Shown here: positions 26,972-64,000 of the stretch, piece after piece
Layout: each line of letters starts with the position of its first letter
Position numbering within the stretch: the stretch's first letter is position 1
Assembly (NCBI GenBank): GCA_022360445.1
Contig: JAKSCV010000076.1
Span: forward strand, 1-64,000
From: Gammaproteobacteria bacterium
GTDB lineage: Bacteria; Pseudomonadota; Gammaproteobacteria; UBA5861
Length of the DNA: 64,000 nt
Reading direction: 5' to 3'
Translations under genes and position numbers: made by a program
Notes under the pieces: generated by a model
The model's input: only the letters and a program-made list of their open reading frames with translations
Databases searched by the model: none
What the model was told of the DNA's origin: nothing

Positions 26972-28123
26972 TTAAGCCAGTAACTCTGTGAATAAGGCTT
27001 CAGTCTTTTCAACCAGTTTGGCTGTTGTGAATTCATTGTCCAGCCGGACTTTCCCGGCCCGGCCCATGGTGGCCCGTAGAGAAGCATCCTGAAGCAATTT
27101 TCGAAAGCAATCAGTAAATCGTTCAACTGCGGCATCCGGGACGATGAAACCGGTTTCACCATCAACAACCAGTTCCGCGCATCCGCCTACATCACTGGCC
27201 ACGACAGGTTTGTGACAGGCCATATATTCCAGAATGACATTCGGACAGCCTTCCGAGTGACTGGCCAACACACAGATATCCATGGCATGGATCAAATCCG
27301 GCGCGTCGGTGCGCTGGCCGGTTAAAATGAAGCGCTCGTCCAGCTGGTGCTTGTGAATCATGGCCTGTAACTTCTCGTGCTTGTTGCCATAACCCATCGC
27401 CAGAAAGTAAACATTGTGGCCTTGGTCCCGCAGCTGGGCCATAGATTCAATCATGGACTCGTGATCTTTTTCGAACGTGTAACGCCCCACCATTCCAATG
27501 ACCATGGCATCGGCCGGAATTTTAAATTCTGCTCTCACTTCATTGGCCGGACGAAAATGATCAAAACGACTGATGTCCATTCCATTGTGAATAGTCTTCA
27601 CTTTGTTCTCATGAATACCCCAAACTTTTTTCAAGTGAGGGATGACATTGCCGGCATTGACAATGACGACATCAGTTACTTTTAACAATATTTTGTCCAC
27701 CCAAAAGTGATGCTTTTTTTTCCACGGGTCCATCCCGCGAATAGAGCAGATCACTTTCGGTCTTCCAGCCAGTTTGGCGGCTAAACGGCCATACGTATCG
27801 GATGTGAATAAATAGGTCTGGACAAGATCTGGCTTGATGTCTCTGAATAATTTCACCAGCGTTTTGAGTGTTTTCATATTAAAAAAGCCACTGTGCTCAA
27901 TGTGATGAATCGGGATATCGAGCATCTCAATCTGGGGGGCCAGCGTTTTGATCGAGGCATCCAGATTCACGAGGTGAAAGTCAAAGCGGTCGTGGGACGC
28001 GCCTTTTAAATATTCAATGACCTGCCGTTGAGCACCACCGACACTCAAGTTGTCGATCAGAATAACAATGCGTTTTTTTTCAGGCATAGGAAACAAAACC
28101 TTGTTGTTTTTGAAGAAGTCCAT
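26972..28123 (-). CDS. GT4-family glycosyltransferase
   Basis: A 383-residue retaining GT-B glycosyltransferase. The N-terminal acceptor domain starts KRIVILIDNLSVGGAQRQVI. The linker segment IPADAMVIGMVGRYTFEKDH opens the donor half, and the donor-binding EX7E motif is in SEGCPNVILEYMACHKPVV. A second ATG at 28087 (MPEKKRIV) fits the family N-terminus better; neither start has a clear ribosome site. It is isolated from other sugar genes, so its acceptor is unknown, though it could serve the distant exopolysaccharide block. Confidence 0.88.
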   Translation of the reverse strand: MDFFKNNKVLFPMPEKKRIVILIDNLSVGGAQRQVIEYLKGASHDRFDFHLVNLDASIKTLAPQIEMLDIPIHHIEHSGFFNMKTLKTLVKLFRDIKPDLVQTYLFTSDTYGRLAAKLAGRPKVICSIRGMDPWKKKHHFWVDKILLKVTDVVIVNAGNVIPHLKKVWGIHENKVKTIHNGMDISRFDHFRPANEVRAEFKIPADAMVIGMVGRYTFEKDHESMIESMAQLRDQGHNVYFLAMGYGNKHEKLQAMIHKHQLDERFILTGQRTDAPDLIHAMDICVLASHSEGCPNVILEYMACHKPVVASDVGGCAELVVDGETGFIVPDAAVERFTDCFRKLLQDASLRATMGRAGKVRLDNEFTTAKLVEKTEALFTELLA

Positions 28124-28417: not shown

Positions 28418-30415
28418 TTAGGGGAGCACGGTATCACTTCGGGCTGAGAGGTTCTGAATGCGGGTGTCTTCGGCCATTGGGGTATCGGCCGTGCTAAAGG
28501 AGCTGGCGTTGGGGAATTGAACGAGCAGGTATTCCGCCAGTGCGTCCTGCTCGGTGCCGTCGTCAGCAAAAGTAGCGTCGCCGGTCTGCACGCTTTCCAT
28601 TTCCAGGTCAAGCAGTTCGGTCGCGGGGAAGGGATAACCGTCACCGCCGCTGGCGAGAAAGCCCAGTGTCACCATGCGGAATGTGCGGTTGGGGTCGCCC
28701 TGTAGCGCACCATCCTGAACAATCACGTCAGCCGTTTCGCCCGCATCTGCACCGTTGCTGTCGTGCACGATCAGAGAGCGAACGCGCGCGCCAGCTGTGA
28801 GACTGGGGTCAAAGCTGAATGCCATGCCGGAAATCTGGGGAAACTGTCCGGGTGTAGCGCCATCAGCGGTGGCCGAAACAGCGTGTTCCACAATGGCTTG
28901 CAGTTCCGCCGCAGTGACGGTGAGCAGGGTTAGGCTGTTATTGAATCGCAAGGAGTTCTGGATATCGAACTGTGAAATTTGTCCCTCTTCTTTTCCGGCC
29001 GCAGGGATCGCTTTAGGTGGCAGGTAAACCGTGTCGTTAGGGTCTGTAGATCCGGCTGGAATTTCTGTCGAACCAATGGCTGCACGGATACCGCCACCAT
29101 TTTTTAAAGATACCGCGACAGTGGCGTCACTTTGCTGCGCATACCACAGGTTGGCATCAGCGGTGAGGTTGCCAAGATTGGTCTCTTCGGTGCGCACGCT
29201 GCCGCGGATACCGTTGAGGTACACCGTGGTGCGGCCAAAGGTGGTGCCTTCGCGTGTTAACAGCACATCACCGAGGGCGTAAGCCAGCACGGCTACTTCT
29301 GCATTGGCATCGACGTAGGAGAGGTTGTTTTCGATCAACCCCTGCTCGTCGGTGGCGTAGGCGCCGCTAATGACCTCATCGACACTGGAATCAATCAAAA
29401 TGCCGTTCGTGTCAAATTCTACTACCAGGCGGCCCAGATATTTGTAATCGCCGTCGGTGTTGACGATGGCAACGGGTTGGTTGGCCGCAGAAGTGTGCCA
29501 CAACGGATACGTATCCGCAGCGGTGTCGTCAATGCGCAATCGATCTGTGTTGTCCGCCAGCAAGGTGTTGGAACCACCGGCGACGATGATGTCCACGTCG
29601 CTTAACTTTTCAGCCAGAGCTTTTTCTATGGCGATTTGCTGCATGTGCGCGAGCAAAATCACTTTATTGATACCGGCTGCTGTGAGTGCGTCTACGGATT
29701 GCTGGATTTCCGTAGCAAGAGCATCGAGATCCGTGGTGTCGGCAGGACTGATGACAATGTCCTCACCCGGTGAGGAAATAGACGTCAGCGTGGGTGTGGT
29801 CGCGCCGATGATACCAATGGATTCGCCGTCGACATCAACGGTCACATAAGCCGCAATCTTGCCTGCCAGTGTTGAAGCGATCGCGCCATTGGTGCCCACC
29901 AGTGGGCCAAGATCCGCATCGGCGGAGAAGTCCAGGTTGGCTGATAAGTAAGGGAAAGCCGCACCCGGGTAGTCGCCGTCAGCCGCGAGCAGAGAGGCAA
30001 TCTCATCTGGGCCATTATCAAATTCGTGGTTGCCGAAGGCGCTGGCCTGGACACCCATCGCATTGAGGAAGGCGATGTCGCCGCGACCGGCTGAGGGTAC
30101 GCCCAGCAGACTGGCCATGCTGTCGTCGTCACTGGCAGCATACAAGGGGCCGGGGATGTAGTTGTCGCCCGAGGACAACACCAACGTATTATCAGGGTAT
30201 TCGTTCCGAAGTTTCTCTAAAATCGCGGAAAAACGCGGTACATTGCCCACCACATCACCGCCGCCATCGGCATCGGCCATGTGCAGCAGTTGCAGGGTGA
30301 AGGTTTGGGGGTCGTCATCAGAAGTTTCGTCGTCATCATCGTCGCTACAGGCCGTTAAAAACAACGCAAGAACAGCCGCGCAAGAGAGCTTGAGTATCTC
30401 TTTGTTTAGTATCAT
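28418..30415 (-). CDS. 5'-nucleotidase/metallophosphatase lipoprotein
   Basis: A 665-residue secreted lipoprotein. The signal peptide ends in the lipobox LTAC (about residue 22), followed by an acidic tether SDDDDDETSDDD. The N-terminal metallophosphatase domain has LLHMADADGGG, LVLSSGDNYIPG and the metal motif FGNHEFDNG. A 5'-nucleotidase C-terminal domain follows from about residue 390 (LGNLTADANLWYAQ, SLKNGGGIRA). Family members release phosphate from nucleotides or UDP-sugars outside the cytoplasm. It is about 100 residues longer than E. coli UshA. A strong GAGGAAAG site precedes ATG. Confidence 0.9.
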   Translation of the reverse strand: MILNKEILKLSCAAVLALFLTACSDDDDDETSDDDPQTFTLQLLHMADADGGGDVVGNVPRFSAILEKLRNEYPDNTLVLSSGDNYIPGPLYAASDDDSMASLLGVPSAGRGDIAFLNAMGVQASAFGNHEFDNGPDEIASLLAADGDYPGAAFPYLSANLDFSADADLGPLVGTNGAIASTLAGKIAAYVTVDVDGESIGIIGATTPTLTSISSPGEDIVISPADTTDLDALATEIQQSVDALTAAGINKVILLAHMQQIAIEKALAEKLSDVDIIVAGGSNTLLADNTDRLRIDDTAADTYPLWHTSAANQPVAIVNTDGDYKYLGRLVVEFDTNGILIDSSVDEVISGAYATDEQGLIENNLSYVDANAEVAVLAYALGDVLLTREGTTFGRTTVYLNGIRGSVRTEETNLGNLTADANLWYAQQSDATVAVSLKNGGGIRAAIGSTEIPAGSTDPNDTVYLPPKAIPAAGKEEGQISQFDIQNSLRFNNSLTLLTVTAAELQAIVEHAVSATADGATPGQFPQISGMAFSFDPSLTAGARVRSLIVHDSNGADAGETADVIVQDGALQGDPNRTFRMVTLGFLASGGDGYPFPATELLDLEMESVQTGDATFADDGTEQDALAEYLLVQFPNASSFSTADTPMAEDTRIQNLSARSDTVLP

Positions 30416-57815: not shown

Positions 57816-57920
57816 TGACACAACGTTGCGACCTTCCCGCCTCGTCAAAAAGGAACTTTTTCAGCTCGTTTGAGTCTCCATAGAAAAATCAATAAACATC
57901 CCCGCTGTACTGGAGCATTT

Positions 57921-58883
57921 ATGCATGATACCTACCCGTTACTTAAAGTCTCGGATTTTCCTCCGATCAAACGATCACATTTAGAAGTCATCCAGGTTAA
58001 TCTTGGTTATTACTGCAACTTGTCATGCTTGCACTGTCACGTTAATGCTGGGCCTAAACGCACAGAAATGATGGATCGGGAAACGGCTGATTACGTGATC
58101 GAATTTATACAAACCAGCGGTGTAAAAACGCTTGATTTAACTGGGGGAGCACCCGAGTTAAATTCACAATTCTACTACTTGGTGGAGGCTGGGAAAAAAC
58201 TCGGTATGCACATTATCGACCGCTGTAATCTGACTGTGCTCGAAGAGCCTGGACAAGAAGCGCTGGCTGAGTTTTTGGCCGAAAATGGCATCCATGTTGT
58301 TGCTTCGCTTCCCTGTTATTTGGAAGAAAATGTAAAAGCGCAACGGGGTAAAAATGTGTATTGGCCGAGCATACGAGGGCTGCAAAAATTGAATCAGTTA
58401 GGGTACGGCAAAGCGGGTTCCGGGCTTGTACTGGATTTAGTGTATAACCCGCAAGGACCGGTTCTGCCTCCTGGGCAAGCTGGTCTGGAGGCGGCTTATA
58501 AAAACCATCTGTCAGAGCATTTTGATGTCGTATTTAACTCCCTGCTAGTACTGGCCAACCTGCCGATTCAGCGGTTTGGCAGCACACTGGTTTCCCGCGG
58601 CCAGTTCGAAGACTACATGGCCCTGTTGAAATCGTCTCACAATGACGATAATCTCGAAGAAGTCATGTGCCGCACGACGATCAGTGTGGATTACAATGGA
58701 TATGTCTATGATTGCGATTTTAATCAAATGCTAAACATGCCTCTGACGGGTAATGCGCTCAAACGCAGGCATATTCAAGAATTAATTGAGGCCAAGCTGT
58801 ACGGATTGCCGATTGCTACAGCGGATCACTGCTATGGGTGCACGGCAGGCCAGGGGTCGAGCTGTGGTGGCGCGTTGAGTTAG
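57921..58883 (+). CDS. arsS: Arsenosugar biosynthesis radical SAM protein ArsS
   Basis: A 320-residue radical SAM enzyme. The [4Fe-4S] motif is NLGYYCNLSCLHCHVNAGP (Cys about 33, 37, 40), and a C-terminal Cys cluster is CYGCTAGQGSSCGGALS. These features and the LDLTGGAPELN strand match ArsS, which joins a 5'-deoxyadenosyl group to dimethylarsenic species on the way to arsenosugars. ATG 57921 follows TGGAGC; the frame opens at 57870. Its stop TAG lies in the TTAG at the left edge of miniature element C. No arsM is in view. Confidence 0.9.
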   Translation: MHDTYPLLKVSDFPPIKRSHLEVIQVNLGYYCNLSCLHCHVNAGPKRTEMMDRETADYVIEFIQTSGVKTLDLTGGAPELNSQFYYLVEAGKKLGMHIIDRCNLTVLEEPGQEALAEFLAENGIHVVASLPCYLEENVKAQRGKNVYWPSIRGLQKLNQLGYGKAGSGLVLDLVYNPQGPVLPPGQAGLEAAYKNHLSEHFDVVFNSLLVLANLPIQRFGSTLVSRGQFEDYMALLKSSHNDDNLEEVMCRTTISVDYNGYVYDCDFNQMLNMPLTGNALKRRHIQELIEAKLYGLPIATADHCYGCTAGQGSSCGGALS

Positions 58884-59144
58884 GGCCTTAACACTTATTT
58901 CAAATCAGCGTTGCTGTCCCAAATAGGGCCAGGCAAGTCACGAGGAGAGAAGTTTGGTTATTCCAAATGAACGACGAGCAACGCCACCTGGCCCTATTTG
59001 GGGCGCAATCCGAAGGGACGGTGCCATTTTTTCGCAGAACGGTGTTACATTTCGCTTATGTACAACGAGTACACAGCGCTCAATGTGCCTTGTTCCGAAA
59101 AAAAATGACCGTCGGCGCTGTTTTGCCATTCATGTGAACAGGCC
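58884..59144. mobile_element. Miniature inverted-repeat element, family 1, copy C
   Basis: A 261-bp element, the same length as copy A, between TTAG (58880-58883) and CTAA (59145-59148). Termini are GGCCTTAACAC...GTGAACAGGCC. The 34-bp core at 58950-58983 matches copy A at the same offset. Inside, CCCAAATAGGGCCAGG (58917-58932) and CCTGGCCCTATTTGGG (58988-59003) are perfect inverted repeats. It separates arsS from the rest of the arsenosugar genes. Confidence 0.75.
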
Positions 59145-59159
59145 CTAACAGGCAAAAAA

Positions 59160-59540
59160 ATGCACATAAACACGACGGGCGTTGCCTGGTTTGAAATTCC
59201 TGTGGAAATATTCTCCCGTGCTAAATATTTTTACAGCCGTGTGTTTGAGTGCACGATACCCACACAACAAATTGATTCGCATTTCGTGGGCTTATTGACC
59301 TTCGGTCAGTCGAAAACTCAAGGTGCGATCATCTGCGCGGAAGGCTACACACCCTCAGAGCAGGGGCCGTTGATCTTCCTCAATCCAGAGTTGGCATTGG
59401 CACCTCTGCTGGAGCGAGTGAACAAATATGGCGGTAAAGTGTTGGCCCCTGCCGTGGCCATACCAGGAGGGGCCGGTTACTATGCCATCATCAGAGACTC
59501 AGAAGGCAATCGTCTCGGTATCAGTGCTACTGATGAGTGA
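59160..59540 (+). CDS. VOC-superfamily protein in arsenosugar cluster
   Basis: A 126-residue protein of the small VOC type: VAWFEIPVEIFSRAKYFYSR, then FVGLLTFGQS, and GGAGYYAIIRDSEGNRLGIS at the C-terminus. The ATG is 12 bases after the miniature element, with ACAGG as ribosome site. It overlaps the next gene by GTGA, so it is coupled to the glycosyltransferases. A role with arsenic is inferred from location; the C-As lyase ArsI is also a VOC protein but has metal ligands not obvious here. Confidence 0.82.
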   Translation: MHINTTGVAWFEIPVEIFSRAKYFYSRVFECTIPTQQIDSHFVGLLTFGQSKTQGAIICAEGYTPSEQGPLIFLNPELALAPLLERVNKYGGKVLAPAVAIPGGAGYYAIIRDSEGNRLGISATDE

Positions 59541-60232
59541 GTAACATCGTGACGGTGAGCTTTATCATCCCCACCCTGAATGAAGAGGCTGTGATTCGGA
59601 AAACTCTGGAATGTCTGCAAGCTGAGCGGGCAAACGGGCATGAAGTTGTGCTCGTCGATGGGGGCAGCCAGGACCAAACGATTGCGTTAGCCCAAGAGTA
59701 TGTTGATTACACCATCCAGTCAGCGCCGGGCCGATCTGTACAAATGAACAGAGGTGCAACTGTCAGCCAGGGCGATATTTTGTGTTTTTTACATGCCGAT
59801 ACACTAACACCTAAAAATTGTGCTGCCGTAATCGAAGAGGCCATCGCAAAAACAGGACGACCCTGGGGACGCTTTGACGTCCGCTTATCTGGGAGCCATT
59901 GCGCGTTTCGGATCATTGAAACCATGATTAATGTGCGTTCTCGTCTGAGCGGTATTGCCACAGGAGATCAGGGCATTTTTGTGCAGCGGGCATTTTTTGA
60001 ACAGCTCGGCGGGTTTCCTGTGATGCTTCTCATGGAAGACGTTCAATTTTCAAAACAGGCCAAGGTACGGTCGCGTCCTGTGTGTTTGTCACAACATTTG
60101 GTCACATCCAGCCGGCGCTGGGAGCAGAACGGTATCTTCAAGACAATCTGGCTGATGTGGCGTCTCCGCTTGGCGTTTTATCTCGGCGCTGACCCCTATC
60201 AGTTAGCTCAACGCTACCGGAATACCCGGTGA
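59537..60232 (+). CDS. TIGR04283-type arsenosugar-cluster glycosyltransferase
   Basis: A 231-residue GT-A (family 2-like) glycosyltransferase. Nucleotide-sugar motifs are SFIIPTLNEEAVIRKTLE, VVLVDGGSQDQTIALA and the metal segment FLHADT; LLMEDVQFSKQ follows. This matches the rSAM-associated glycosyltransferase partner of ArsS (TIGR04283). GTG start overlaps the VOC stop; its end overlaps the next gene by four bases. Confidence 0.88.
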   Translation: MSNIVTVSFIIPTLNEEAVIRKTLECLQAERANGHEVVLVDGGSQDQTIALAQEYVDYTIQSAPGRSVQMNRGATVSQGDILCFLHADTLTPKNCAAVIEEAIAKTGRPWGRFDVRLSGSHCAFRIIETMINVRSRLSGIATGDQGIFVQRAFFEQLGGFPVMLLMEDVQFSKQAKVRSRPVCLSQHLVTSSRRWEQNGIFKTIWLMWRLRLAFYLGADPYQLAQRYRNTR

Positions 60233-60876
60233 GCCGTCGATTAACAGGCGCAAAGGTCATCGTCTTTGGGAAAAAACCCGAGGCAGGGCGGGTAAAAACC
60301 CGTTTGTTTGAAGTCATTTCGCCCATGCAGGCGGCCAGATTGCATACTCAATTACTGGAAAAAACATTAAAAACAGCCAGCGAGGTACCCCATGCGCATG
60401 TGGAAGTCTGGGGAGAAGGTGAGCGCCGGGAGCCGTTTTTTATGTACTTGGCACAACGTTATCAGGCTGTTTTTTATCGCCAAAAGGGTGTTAATTTGGG
60501 GGAGCGTATGCGTTTTACTTTCCAACAGGGGCTGGATGTTCATCGTAAAGTGATCCTAGTTGGATCGGATTGCCCGGCCTTAAGCAAGGCGACATTTCAG
60601 TCCGCGATCCAGTCGTTGGACCGCGTGCCTGCTGTGTTTGTTCCAGCGACGGACGGTGGCTATACCCTGATTGGCTTGAGACAAGTGCACCCTTATCTTT
60701 TCTGGAAGATCGCGTGGGGAACTCAACGTGTTATGGCGCAAACAAGAAGCCGCTTGCAGGTTTTGGGGTGGCGCTGGCATGAATTGCCTAAAATGTGGGA
60801 TTTAGATCGGCCGGAGGACTTAGAAAGGCTGATGAGTTCGGGAATCCAGCCAGTCAGTGGTGATTGGCTGGATTGA
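60229..60876 (+). CDS. TIGR04282-type arsenosugar-cluster glycosyltransferase
   Basis: A 215-residue nucleotidyl/glycosyltransferase A-like protein. Motifs: VIVFGKKPEAGRVKTRLFE, LVGSDCPALSKATFQSAI and VFVPATDGGYTLIGLRQ. It is the second ArsS-associated transferase (TIGR04282). The GTG start overlaps the preceding stop, so VOC and both transferases form one coupled unit. Convergent with the MaoC pair. Confidence 0.9.
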   Translation: MSRRLTGAKVIVFGKKPEAGRVKTRLFEVISPMQAARLHTQLLEKTLKTASEVPHAHVEVWGEGERREPFFMYLAQRYQAVFYRQKGVNLGERMRFTFQQGLDVHRKVILVGSDCPALSKATFQSAIQSLDRVPAVFVPATDGGYTLIGLRQVHPYLFWKIAWGTQRVMAQTRSRLQVLGWRWHELPKMWDLDRPEDLERLMSSGIQPVSGDWLD

Positions 60877-60929: not shown

Positions 60930-61346
60930 CTATTGATCGCGGACAGTTGCTGTACTGAGAATCAGAGGCTTACCATCCTGATTTGTGGCAGACAGCGCCA
61001 AGTCAGCATAGGCAACACCCTCTTTTTCATACGTTTTGGCGACAACGCCTTTGAATTCAACATTATCACCCGGCCAGAGACGTTCGCGGAACTGTACGTT
61101 GTACTTGTGGACTGTGGTCGGCCCAAACCATTCCACGGGCACGCGGCTTAAAATGCCGGCGGTCAACAGCCCCATACCGAAGACTGTTTCCAGGCCTGCT
61201 TTCTCCGCAAAAGTCTGGTCGTGATGGATGGGGTTGAAGTCGCCACCACCGCCTGCGTATTTCACGAACTGCGTGCGGTTAAAGTCGTTTACGGTGAAGC
61301 TGTATTCGTCGCCTTCTTTAACAGAACTAATCGCTACTTTGCTCAT
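60930..61346 (-). CDS. MaoC-like (R)-specific hydratase subunit
   Basis: A 138-residue hotdog protein carrying the hydratase motif FVKYAGGGGDFNPIHHDQTF with catalytic Asp and His. The downstream strand is WFGPTTVHKYNVQFRERLWPGD. It pairs with the upstream motif-less hotdog gene (ATGA overlap), the split two-subunit form of R-hydratases in actinobacterial and proteobacterial acyl-CoA pathways. Likely substrate: a 2-enoyl thioester. Confidence 0.88.
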   Translation of the reverse strand: MSKVAISSVKEGDEYSFTVNDFNRTQFVKYAGGGGDFNPIHHDQTFAEKAGLETVFGMGLLTAGILSRVPVEWFGPTTVHKYNVQFRERLWPGDNVEFKGVVAKTYEKEGVAYADLALSATNQDGKPLILSTATVRDQ

Positions 61347-61786
61347 TTGACGACACCTCCTGTTTGAATCACAGTGCTTTTGACATGCATGACAACGTTG
61401 CCATTTTTATCTTTGTAATTAATGCCCATGTCATAAAACTGCATTTCGCCACCACGTTTGCCTTTTTTGGTGTAGCCAACAGGCTCTTCGTGCTCAATTG
61501 TCAAGTGTTCACCTGCAAAAATCGGGCGCTCAATGGTCCATTCTTGTGCACCATGTAAGACAAAGCGCAGGTCTAGTCCAAGCAGTTCTACTTTGTTTTT
61601 TTGTCCCGCTGCGGGGAAAAAATTTTCTACCGTAGAGTACGTTGGTGGCATAACAACGGAAGGTAAGCCCGCTTCTTTTGCCGCAATTTCATCATGATAA
61701 AGAGGTTCATCACATTCAATTGAGTTGGCAAACTCATGAATTTTCCCGCGTTCAATGGGAATCCCTGGTGGGTTAATCACAGCCAT
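61343..61786 (-). CDS. MaoC N-terminal-like dehydratase subunit (FAS1-type)
   Basis: A 147-residue hotdog-fold protein: IPIERGKIHEFANSIECDEP, EAGLPSVVMPPTYSTVENFF, the strand LRFVLHGAQEWTIERPIFAGE and GKRGGEMQFYDMGI. It lacks the DxNPxH hydratase motif and would form the structural half of a heterodimer with the overlapping downstream gene. ATG 61786 has a GGAG site; the frame opens at 61804. Confidence 0.87.
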   Translation of the reverse strand: MAVINPPGIPIERGKIHEFANSIECDEPLYHDEIAAKEAGLPSVVMPPTYSTVENFFPAAGQKNKVELLGLDLRFVLHGAQEWTIERPIFAGEHLTIEHEEPVGYTKKGKRGGEMQFYDMGINYKDKNGNVVMHVKSTVIQTGGVVK

Positions 61787-61991
61787 ATCATTTCTCCATA
61801 GCAATTGTAATTATTTAGATGGTATAAAATCGTAGAGTACGTGAAAGATGACTCCAGAGTAAAACTTACAGTTTTTTTAGAGTCTACCAAAATTATCGAT
61901 CTGTCGGATACGCAATTGTGAGTTGGCGCGCTGCGCGGAAGGTGTAAGTGAATAGGATAGTCATTTGAATGAGTTATTTAAGGTGTGAAGT

Positions 61992-62893: not shown

Positions 62894-62933
62894 ATGTCAT
62901 AAAAGGTTCATTCAGCTTTAGCTGTACTGTCAT
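62894..62933 (+). promoter_or_regulatory. Predicted tandem Pho box (PhoB binding sites)
   Basis: Four 7-mers start every 11 bases: ATGTCAT (62894), GGTTCAT (62905), CTTTAGC (62916) and CTGTCAT (62927). The last is a perfect PhoB half site and the first has one mismatch; the inner two are weak. The 7-4-7 phasing is the known Pho box geometry. Ten bases later TAATCT (62944) could be the -10 box, as in PhoB-activated promoters. Confidence 0.6.
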
Positions 62934-62982
62934 GTTTGCTCGCTAATCTTACCTAATGGAAAGACAAAGCGAAAACATACAT

Positions 62983-63777
62983 ATGATGACACCGCTCAAG
63001 TACCGGACGCTCTGGATTTCGGATCTTCATCTCGGAAGTCGAGGGTGCAATGCTGACTATCTCCTCGACTTTCTTCGTAATACACAATGCGACTATCTTT
63101 ACCTAGTGGGCGATATTATTGATCTCTGGGCAATGAAGCGAGGTTTCTATTGGCCGCAGAGCCATAACGATGTTATTCGAACCATCTTGGGTAAAGCCAA
63201 GCATGGGACCAAAGTCATATACATCCCAGGTAACCACGATGAGCCCATCCGTGATCACGTGGGCACGGAGTTTGGCAACATCGAAATCAAAAGGCGCGAT
63301 ATTTTCACAACCGCGACAGGCAAACGCTTGCTGATATTACATGGCGATGAGTTTGACAGCATTGTCTGCTATAGCCGCTTTGTTGCGCATGTCGGTGATG
63401 TTGCCTATGAGCTGTTACTCAAATTCAACCGCTACTTTAACTATGTGCGCCGCAAACTGGGTTACCCCTACTGGTCGATTTCGGCGTATATCAAACATAA
63501 GGTTAAAAATGCTGTGGCTGTGATCAGTAATTATGAAGAAGCGGTCGTCAATGAAGCGCGTAAAGCAAAAGTAGATGGAGTGGTTTGTGGGCATATTCAT
63601 CACCCAGAAATTAAAATTATGGATGGTGTTTTGTACTGCAATGATGGTGACTGGGTTGAAAGCTGCACAGCATTAACCGAAAACTTTGATGGCAAGCTTG
63701 AGGTGATTCATTGGTCGGATCAGCGCAACACATTACACACGCACAATGAAGAGTCGGCTATCGCCAGTCATGTTTGA
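62983..63777 (+). CDS. plcP: PlcP-like metallophosphoesterase (lipid-remodelling phospholipase C; LpxH-related)
   Basis: A calcineurin-like phosphoesterase of 264 residues from this ATG. Metal motifs: WISDLHLGSRG, LVGDIIDLW, YIPGNHDE, LLILHGDEFD and GHIHHPE. WPQSHNDVIRTILGKAKHG matches PlcP proteins, often mislabelled UDP-2,3-diacylglucosamine diphosphatase, which release diacylglycerol from phospholipids in phosphate starvation. The frame starts at 62956, but the predicted promoter would place transcription near there, so 62983 or 62986 is preferred. A glycosyltransferase gene follows after 18 bp, as in plcP-agt operons. Confidence 0.78.
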   Translation: MMTPLKYRTLWISDLHLGSRGCNADYLLDFLRNTQCDYLYLVGDIIDLWAMKRGFYWPQSHNDVIRTILGKAKHGTKVIYIPGNHDEPIRDHVGTEFGNIEIKRRDIFTTATGKRLLILHGDEFDSIVCYSRFVAHVGDVAYELLLKFNRYFNYVRRKLGYPYWSISAYIKHKVKNAVAVISNYEEAVVNEARKAKVDGVVCGHIHHPEIKIMDGVLYCNDGDWVESCTALTENFDGKLEVIHWSDQRNTLHTHNEESAIASHV

Positions 63778-63795
63778 CCGGTTGGCTCAAGTACA

Positions 63796-64000
63796 GTGAA
63801 GGTTCTGATTATTTCTGATGCCTGGCGTCCACAAGTGAACGGCGTCGTGCGTACGCTAGAACAAACGCGGCACTACCTCCAGGCGTGGGGGCATCAAGTC
63901 AACGTCATTGGTCCCGATCAATTCCCGAGCTTACCCATGCCGGGCTACAACACCATCCCGCTGGCTCTTTTCCCGGGGCGGCGATTGGCGAGAATGATTA
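63796..64000 (+). CDS. Agt-like glycosyltransferase, 3' end outside window
   Basis: The GTG at 63796 opens a frame running off the right edge (68 residues). The visible N-terminus, VLIISDAWRPQVNGVVRTLE then LPMPGYNTIPLALFPGRR, is typical of GT4 enzymes of the MgtA/SqdX/Agt group. Next to a PlcP-like gene it is probably Agt, which adds a sugar to diacylglycerol to make phosphate-free glycolipids. The donor sugar cannot be judged from the fragment. Confidence 0.8.
   Translation, partial: MKVLIISDAWRPQVNGVVRTLEQTRHYLQAWGHQVNVIGPDQFPSLPMPGYNTIPLALFPGRRLARMI

What the first reader, a model, noticed from the sequence alone, without database searches (positions are those of the whole stretch)
62894..64000. 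Predicted Pho-regulated PlcP/Agt membrane lipid remodelling operon
A PlcP-type metallophosphoesterase and an Agt-like glycosyltransferase follow four 7-mers phased at exactly 11 bp, ending in a perfect CTGTCAT. In marine bacteria PlcP plus Agt replaces phospholipids with glycolipids when phosphate is scarce. Automated annotation would probably call the first gene an LpxH-type diphosphatase and miss this. The sequence shows the motifs and phasing; the function follows from family knowledge.
Basis: partly seen in the sequence, partly recalled or inferred. Interest (0 to 1): 0.72.

Follow-up and report, generated by a model that had tools for sequence, protein, structure and literature searches.

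The report
Phosphate-starvation membrane lipid swap operon
This is an ordinary but correctly spotted two-gene operon, switched on by phosphate starvation, that very likely strips phosphate-bearing head groups off membrane lipids and replaces them with sugars; the same operon is already experimentally known in Pseudomonas aeruginosa and in marine bacteria.

Summary
The 62894-62933 array (7-mers at 62894, 62905, 62916, 62927) is the top-scoring four-unit 11-bp Pho array of the whole window, on both strands. A TA...T -10 hexamer follows exactly 10 bp downstream; that spacing and the 11-bp period recur upstream of related plcP genes. The phosphoesterase (62986-63777) falls with P. aeruginosa and Sinorhizobium meliloti PlcP, not LpxH (split at SH-aLRT 100). 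It has GNHD where LpxH has GNRD, and the same genome has a separate, bona fide LpxH on another contig. The glycosyltransferase is complete once the contig is extended (63796-64854) and is 49% identical to P. aeruginosa Agt1, whose activity is proven. The genome has PhoR, the end of a PhoB gene cut by a contig end, and Pst. The plcP-agt order occurs in 56 of 77 named genome loci with enough downstream sequence. This is a new member of a known kind; it is not marine-specific. Enzyme activity, PhoB binding and lipid changes in this organism are inferred, not shown.

The parts
62894..62933 (+). Pho box array: four 7-mers at 11-bp period (ATGTCAT, GGTTCAT, CTTTAGC, CTGTCAT)
   Evidence: Sequence; best four-unit score in the window; 0 in 20 million random positions; period 11 conserved upstream of related plcP genes
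62944..62949 (+). Predicted -10 hexamer TAATCT, 10 bp after the last Pho unit
   Evidence: Sequence; in 37 non-redundant related arrays the same offset is T/C at +11 (0.81), A at +12 (0.62), T at +16 (0.62)
62986..63777 (+). plcP: PlcP-type (LpxH2-type) calcineurin-like metallophosphoesterase; first in-frame ATG is 62956, but homologues favour 62986 or 62989
   Evidence: PF00149 45 bits; GNHD motif and tree; 54% identical to P. aeruginosa and 50% to S. meliloti PlcP
63796..64000 (+). agt: start of a GT4 glycosyltransferase gene (GTG start, 18 bp after the plcP stop); continues beyond the window to contig position 64854, 352 aa
   Evidence: Contig extension L004 1897-2955; Pfam GT4 domains; 49% identical to P. 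aeruginosa Agt1 over 325 aa
61992..62870 (+). Upstream neighbour purC, the only purC found in this genome; not part of the operon
   Evidence: PRK13961 431 bits and TIGR00081 257 bits, both over cut-off; one genomic match

Best explanation
A plcP-agt membrane lipid remodelling operon of the PhoBR regulon. When phosphate is low, phosphorylated PhoB binds the 11-bp-phased array at 62894-62933, which takes the place of a -35 element, and starts transcription from the -10 at 62944-62949. PlcP, a metallophosphoesterase, cleaves the phospho-head group from phospholipids to give diacylglycerol. Agt then transfers glucose and/or glucuronic acid from the UDP-sugar to diacylglycerol, giving MGDG and/or GADG that replace phospholipids and free their phosphate. 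Shown here: the sequence features, family membership, gene order, promoter architecture and the presence of PhoR, part of PhoB, and Pst. Inferred from characterised relatives: the enzyme activities, PhoB binding, induction and the lipid products.
For: Tree: 26 PlcP-type and 14 LpxH proteins split cleanly at SH-aLRT 100, with the window protein on the side of the P. aeruginosa and S. meliloti proteins. All PlcP-type rows have GNHD and all LpxH rows GNRD, the published difference between LpxH2 and LpxH (PMC3087551). The window's genome has its own true LpxH, over the curated cut-offs (278 and 257 bits, GNRD), on contig C60. Identity is 54% to P. aeruginosa PlcP, 50% to S. meliloti PlcP, but 22% to its own LpxH. 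Agt is 49% identical to P. aeruginosa Agt1, and the next match in the genome is far weaker (330 against 44 bits). The P. aeruginosa locus has the same plcP-glycosyltransferase order; in that species Agt1 and Agt2 make MGDG and GADG in E. coli and a Pho box precedes the operon (PMC8528852). plcP-agt order in 56 of 77 named genome loci. Pho array and -10 statistics. PhoR over cut-off, PhoB C-terminus with PhoB as best family, two pst loci.
Against: No activity, binding or lipid data exist for this organism. The two middle Pho units are weak, and unweighted counting makes the array only marginally better than control periods. The matrix uses E. coli half-sites recalled from memory. The PhoB gene is cut by a contig end, so the full PhoB was not seen. 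21 of the 77 related plcP loci lack an adjacent Agt-like gene. The named loci were picked as the closest PlcP matches, so the gene-order count is a biased sample.
Confidence: 0.92

Rival explanations
1. The first gene is an LpxH-type UDP-2,3-diacylglucosamine diphosphatase of lipid A synthesis, as databases label it.
For: Its best NCBIfam models are LpxH, though far below cut-off (52 bits against 190; 51 against 134); plasmid records carry that product name.
Against: GNHD instead of GNRD; tree split at SH-aLRT 100; a separate true LpxH in the genome; P. aeruginosa LpxH2 does not replace E. coli LpxH, as reported in PMC3087551; operon with a diacylglycerol glycosyltransferase and a Pho box.
Confidence: 0.03
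2. The operon is a lipid glycosylation operon, but under constitutive or other control; the Pho array is a chance resemblance.
For: Two weak middle units; by unweighted count control periods come close.
Against: Weighted score unmatched in 20 million random positions; period 11 and the -10 spacing recur upstream of related plcP genes; PhoBR is present.
Confidence: 0.04
3. PlcP supplies diacylglycerol, but the glycosyltransferase works in exopolysaccharide or LPS assembly rather than on diacylglycerol.
For: GT4 is a broad family; the NCBIfam matches are all below cut-off.
Against: 49% identity to a proven diacylglycerol glycosyltransferase in the same gene order; its weak NCBIfam matches include glycolipid synthases.
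Confidence: 0.03

Closest known systems
P. aeruginosa plcP-agt1 (PA3219-PA3218), PMC8528852
   Same: Same two genes in the same order, Pho box upstream; 54% (PlcP) and 49% (Agt) identity.
   Different: P. aeruginosa has a second Pho-boxed glycosyltransferase, Agt2 (PA0842). In this genome only the operon's own Agt matched Agt1 strongly; Agt2 itself was not used as a query.
Type 2 plcP-agt clusters of marine bacteria (SAR11 HTCC7211, Erythrobacter NAP1), PMC4796936
   Same: plcP followed by agt; Pho boxes predicted in the plcP clusters; glycolipids replace phospholipids.
   Different: Marine alphaproteobacteria in those examples; this genome's habitat was not established. Those sequences were not compared here.
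S. meliloti PlcP
   Same: Same phosphoesterase clade, 50% identity, 281 aa as in the published LpxH2 description.
   Different: No glycosyltransferase next to plcP in the S. meliloti locus.
LpxH (UDP-2,3-diacylglucosamine diphosphatase)
   Same: Same metallophosphoesterase superfamily and the default annotation name.
   Different: GNRD instead of GNHD, 22% identity to this genome's own LpxH, separate clade.

Membership tests
PlcP (LpxH2-type phospholipase C) | Clusters with PlcP of P. aeruginosa and S. meliloti apart from LpxH | tested here: met
   Tree, SH-aLRT 100. The two reference proteins were identified by gene neighbourhood and length, not by published accession.
PlcP (LpxH2-type phospholipase C) | Metallophosphoesterase motif with GNH(D/E) in block 3 | tested here: met
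   DxH, GD, GNHD, HGD and GHIH all present and invariant across relatives
PlcP (LpxH2-type phospholipase C) | Releases diacylglycerol from phospholipids | not testable with these tools
   Needs an enzyme assay or lipidomics
LpxH | GNRD in block 3 and score over TIGR01854 (190.35) or NF003743 (134) | tested here: not met
   GNHD; 52.1 and 50.9 bits
Agt (diacylglycerol glycosyltransferase) | Full-length GT4 protein similar to a proven Agt, downstream of plcP | tested here: met
   352 aa, 49% identity over 325 aa to P. aeruginosa Agt1, 18-bp gap
Agt (diacylglycerol glycosyltransferase) | Makes MGDG or GADG | not testable with these tools
   Needs expression in E. coli and mass spectrometry
PhoB regulon | Pho box of 7-mers at 11-bp period with a -10 at fixed distance | tested here: met
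PhoB regulon | PhoB and PhoR present in the genome | tested here: inconclusive
   PhoR over cut-off; PhoB only as a C-terminal fragment at a contig start, best match PhoB 95.8 bits over 63 aa
PhoB regulon | Phosphate-dependent expression | not testable with these tools
   Needs expression data

The most novel reading that the evidence does not exclude
The operon lies about 2 kb downstream of an arsenosugar cluster (ArsS and two arsenosugar glycosyltransferases). The Agt could glycosylate diacylglycerol as part of an arsenolipid pathway linked to phosphate scarcity. Nothing tested here supports a functional link beyond closeness, and purC and two dehydratase genes lie between.
Probability: 0.03. 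Interest if true: 0.5.

Novelty: new member of a known kind. Interest (0 to 1): 0.2.

Why it matters
It shows that this unnamed bacterium can probably save phosphate by swapping membrane lipids. It also illustrates a systematic annotation error: in public records PlcP proteins carry the LpxH product name, which hides the pathway. The GNHD versus GNRD residue, Pho box and adjacent agt give a simple rule to re-annotate them.

Tried and rejected
A genome-wide two-unit pattern search with 3 mismatches gave 302 matches against 153 for the backwards control, too unspecific to use. The same-genus genome G001 has no PlcP match, but it also lacks any purC match, so that stretch may simply be missing from its assembly and the absence was not used. 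Pho arrays were sought upstream of the pst operons: pstS1 has a moderate array (9.0 bits), pstS2 none clear. The LpxH reading was rejected. The viral collection scan gave one ordinary relative on a contig listed in IMG/VR. The generic sigma-70 and terminator scan found nothing useful, as expected of a promoter whose -35 is a Pho box.

Full report
What is there. The window's last 1.1 kb holds a phosphoesterase gene and the start of a glycosyltransferase gene behind an array of four 7-mers at exact 11-bp spacing: ATGTCAT (62894), GGTTCAT (62905), CTTTAGC (62916), CTGTCAT (62927). The outer units match CTGTCAT at 6/7 and 7/7; the middle ones only at 4/7 and 3/7. The contig goes on to 65166, and there the glycosyltransferase is complete: 352 aa, 63796-64854, GTG start 18 bp after the plcP stop. 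Upstream lies purC.

Is the array more than chance? A PhoB half-site matrix, built from E. coli half-sites recalled from memory and fixed before scoring, gives the array 17.8 bits, first of 127,922 positions on both strands; the next is 7.1. In 20 million positions of Markov-1 random sequence the maximum was 17.2. By unweighted count the array has 20 of 28 matches, the window's best, but control periods reach 19, so the weights matter. Conservation is an independent test. In 96 regions upstream of plcP-type genes (the window's own included), the median two-unit score is 6.8 at period 11 and 1.0-2.2 at all other periods from 8 to 15; 16 regions reach a four-unit score of 12 at period 11 and none at any other period. 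Aligning 37 non-redundant regions on the array gives a position-locked T/C-A-n-n-n-T at +11 to +16, exactly where the window has TAATCT (62944-62949). This is the 10-bp spacing of PhoB-activated promoters (E. coli pstS, from memory).

The phosphoesterase is PlcP, not LpxH. Its LpxH scores are far under cut-off (52 against 190, 51 against 134). The genome carries a separate LpxH on contig C60 that passes both cut-offs. Reference PlcP proteins came from public records: in P. aeruginosa the gene lies directly before a glycosyltransferase gene and an adenylate cyclase gene, which fits PA3219-PA3218 (PA3217 being cyaB, from memory), and its 270 aa equal the published P. aeruginosa LpxH2 length. The S. 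meliloti protein has the published 281 aa. Tree: PlcP-type and LpxH split at SH-aLRT 100, window protein in the PlcP clade. All PlcP-type rows have GNHD, all LpxH rows GNRD, the distinction described in PMC3087551, which also reports that P. aeruginosa LpxH2 did not replace E. coli LpxH. One relative, L025, has a long branch and its exact place is unsure.

The glycosyltransferase is Agt-like: GT4 domains, 49% identity over 325 aa to the P. aeruginosa protein, the genome's only strong match to it. In P. aeruginosa the proteins PA3218 and PA0842 made MGDG and GADG in E. coli, and a Pho box precedes plcP-agt1 (PMC8528852). A SAR11 Agt does the same, and an agt homologue is the gene most often seen in the vicinity of plcP in marine isolates (PMC4796936). 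Here, 56 of 77 named genome loci with at least 600 bases downstream have an Agt-like gene (40% identity or more, same strand, gap up to 250 bases) after plcP; these loci were chosen as the closest PlcP matches, so the sample is biased.

Regulation. The genome has PhoR over its cut-off and the last 63 residues of PhoB at a contig start directly before it, plus two pst loci. The full PhoB gene is not seen.

Verdict. Corrections: two repeat units are weak, and the operon is not a marine speciality (Burkholderia, Sphingomonas, Chromobacterium, Paraburkholderia). The annotation remark is right: plasmid records call the protein UDP-2,3-diacylglucosamine diphosphatase. This is a new member of a known kind, of modest interest. 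Enzyme activities, PhoB binding and lipid changes in this organism remain inferred.

Noticed in passing
window 57870-60876: Arsenosugar cluster: ArsS radical SAM (447 bits, over cut-off), TIGR04283 and TIGR04282 arsenosugar glycosyltransferases (both over cut-off), with a small glyoxalase-like protein between (the last by eye).
   Followed up: partly
window 60930-61804, - strand: Two adjacent genes similar to mycobacterial-type HadA and HadB (3R)-hydroxyacyl dehydratase subunits, well below cut-off.
   Followed up: no
window 27201-27218, - strand: Strongest two-unit Pho-box-like match in the window (CTGTCACAAACCTGTCGT, 17.4 bits), but inside a glycosyltransferase reading frame (26972-28123), so probably chance or an intragenic site.
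   Followed up: partly
window 28418-30415, - strand: Reading frame resembling a secreted 5'-nucleotidase (by eye), another possible phosphate-scavenging gene.
   Followed up: no
L053 1-189 (genome contig C83 start) and genome contig C48:6-188: phoB appears split by assembly: its C-terminal end lies at the start of C83 before phoR, and an N-terminal response-regulator piece lies at the start of C48; whether both are one gene was not shown.
   Followed up: partly
genome G001 (same genus): No purC and no plcP match in a genome rated 97% complete; most likely an assembly gap at this locus.
   Followed up: partly
L142: P. aeruginosa plasmid pHPA0698-2 carries what looks like the normally chromosomal plcP-agt1 region.
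   Followed up: no
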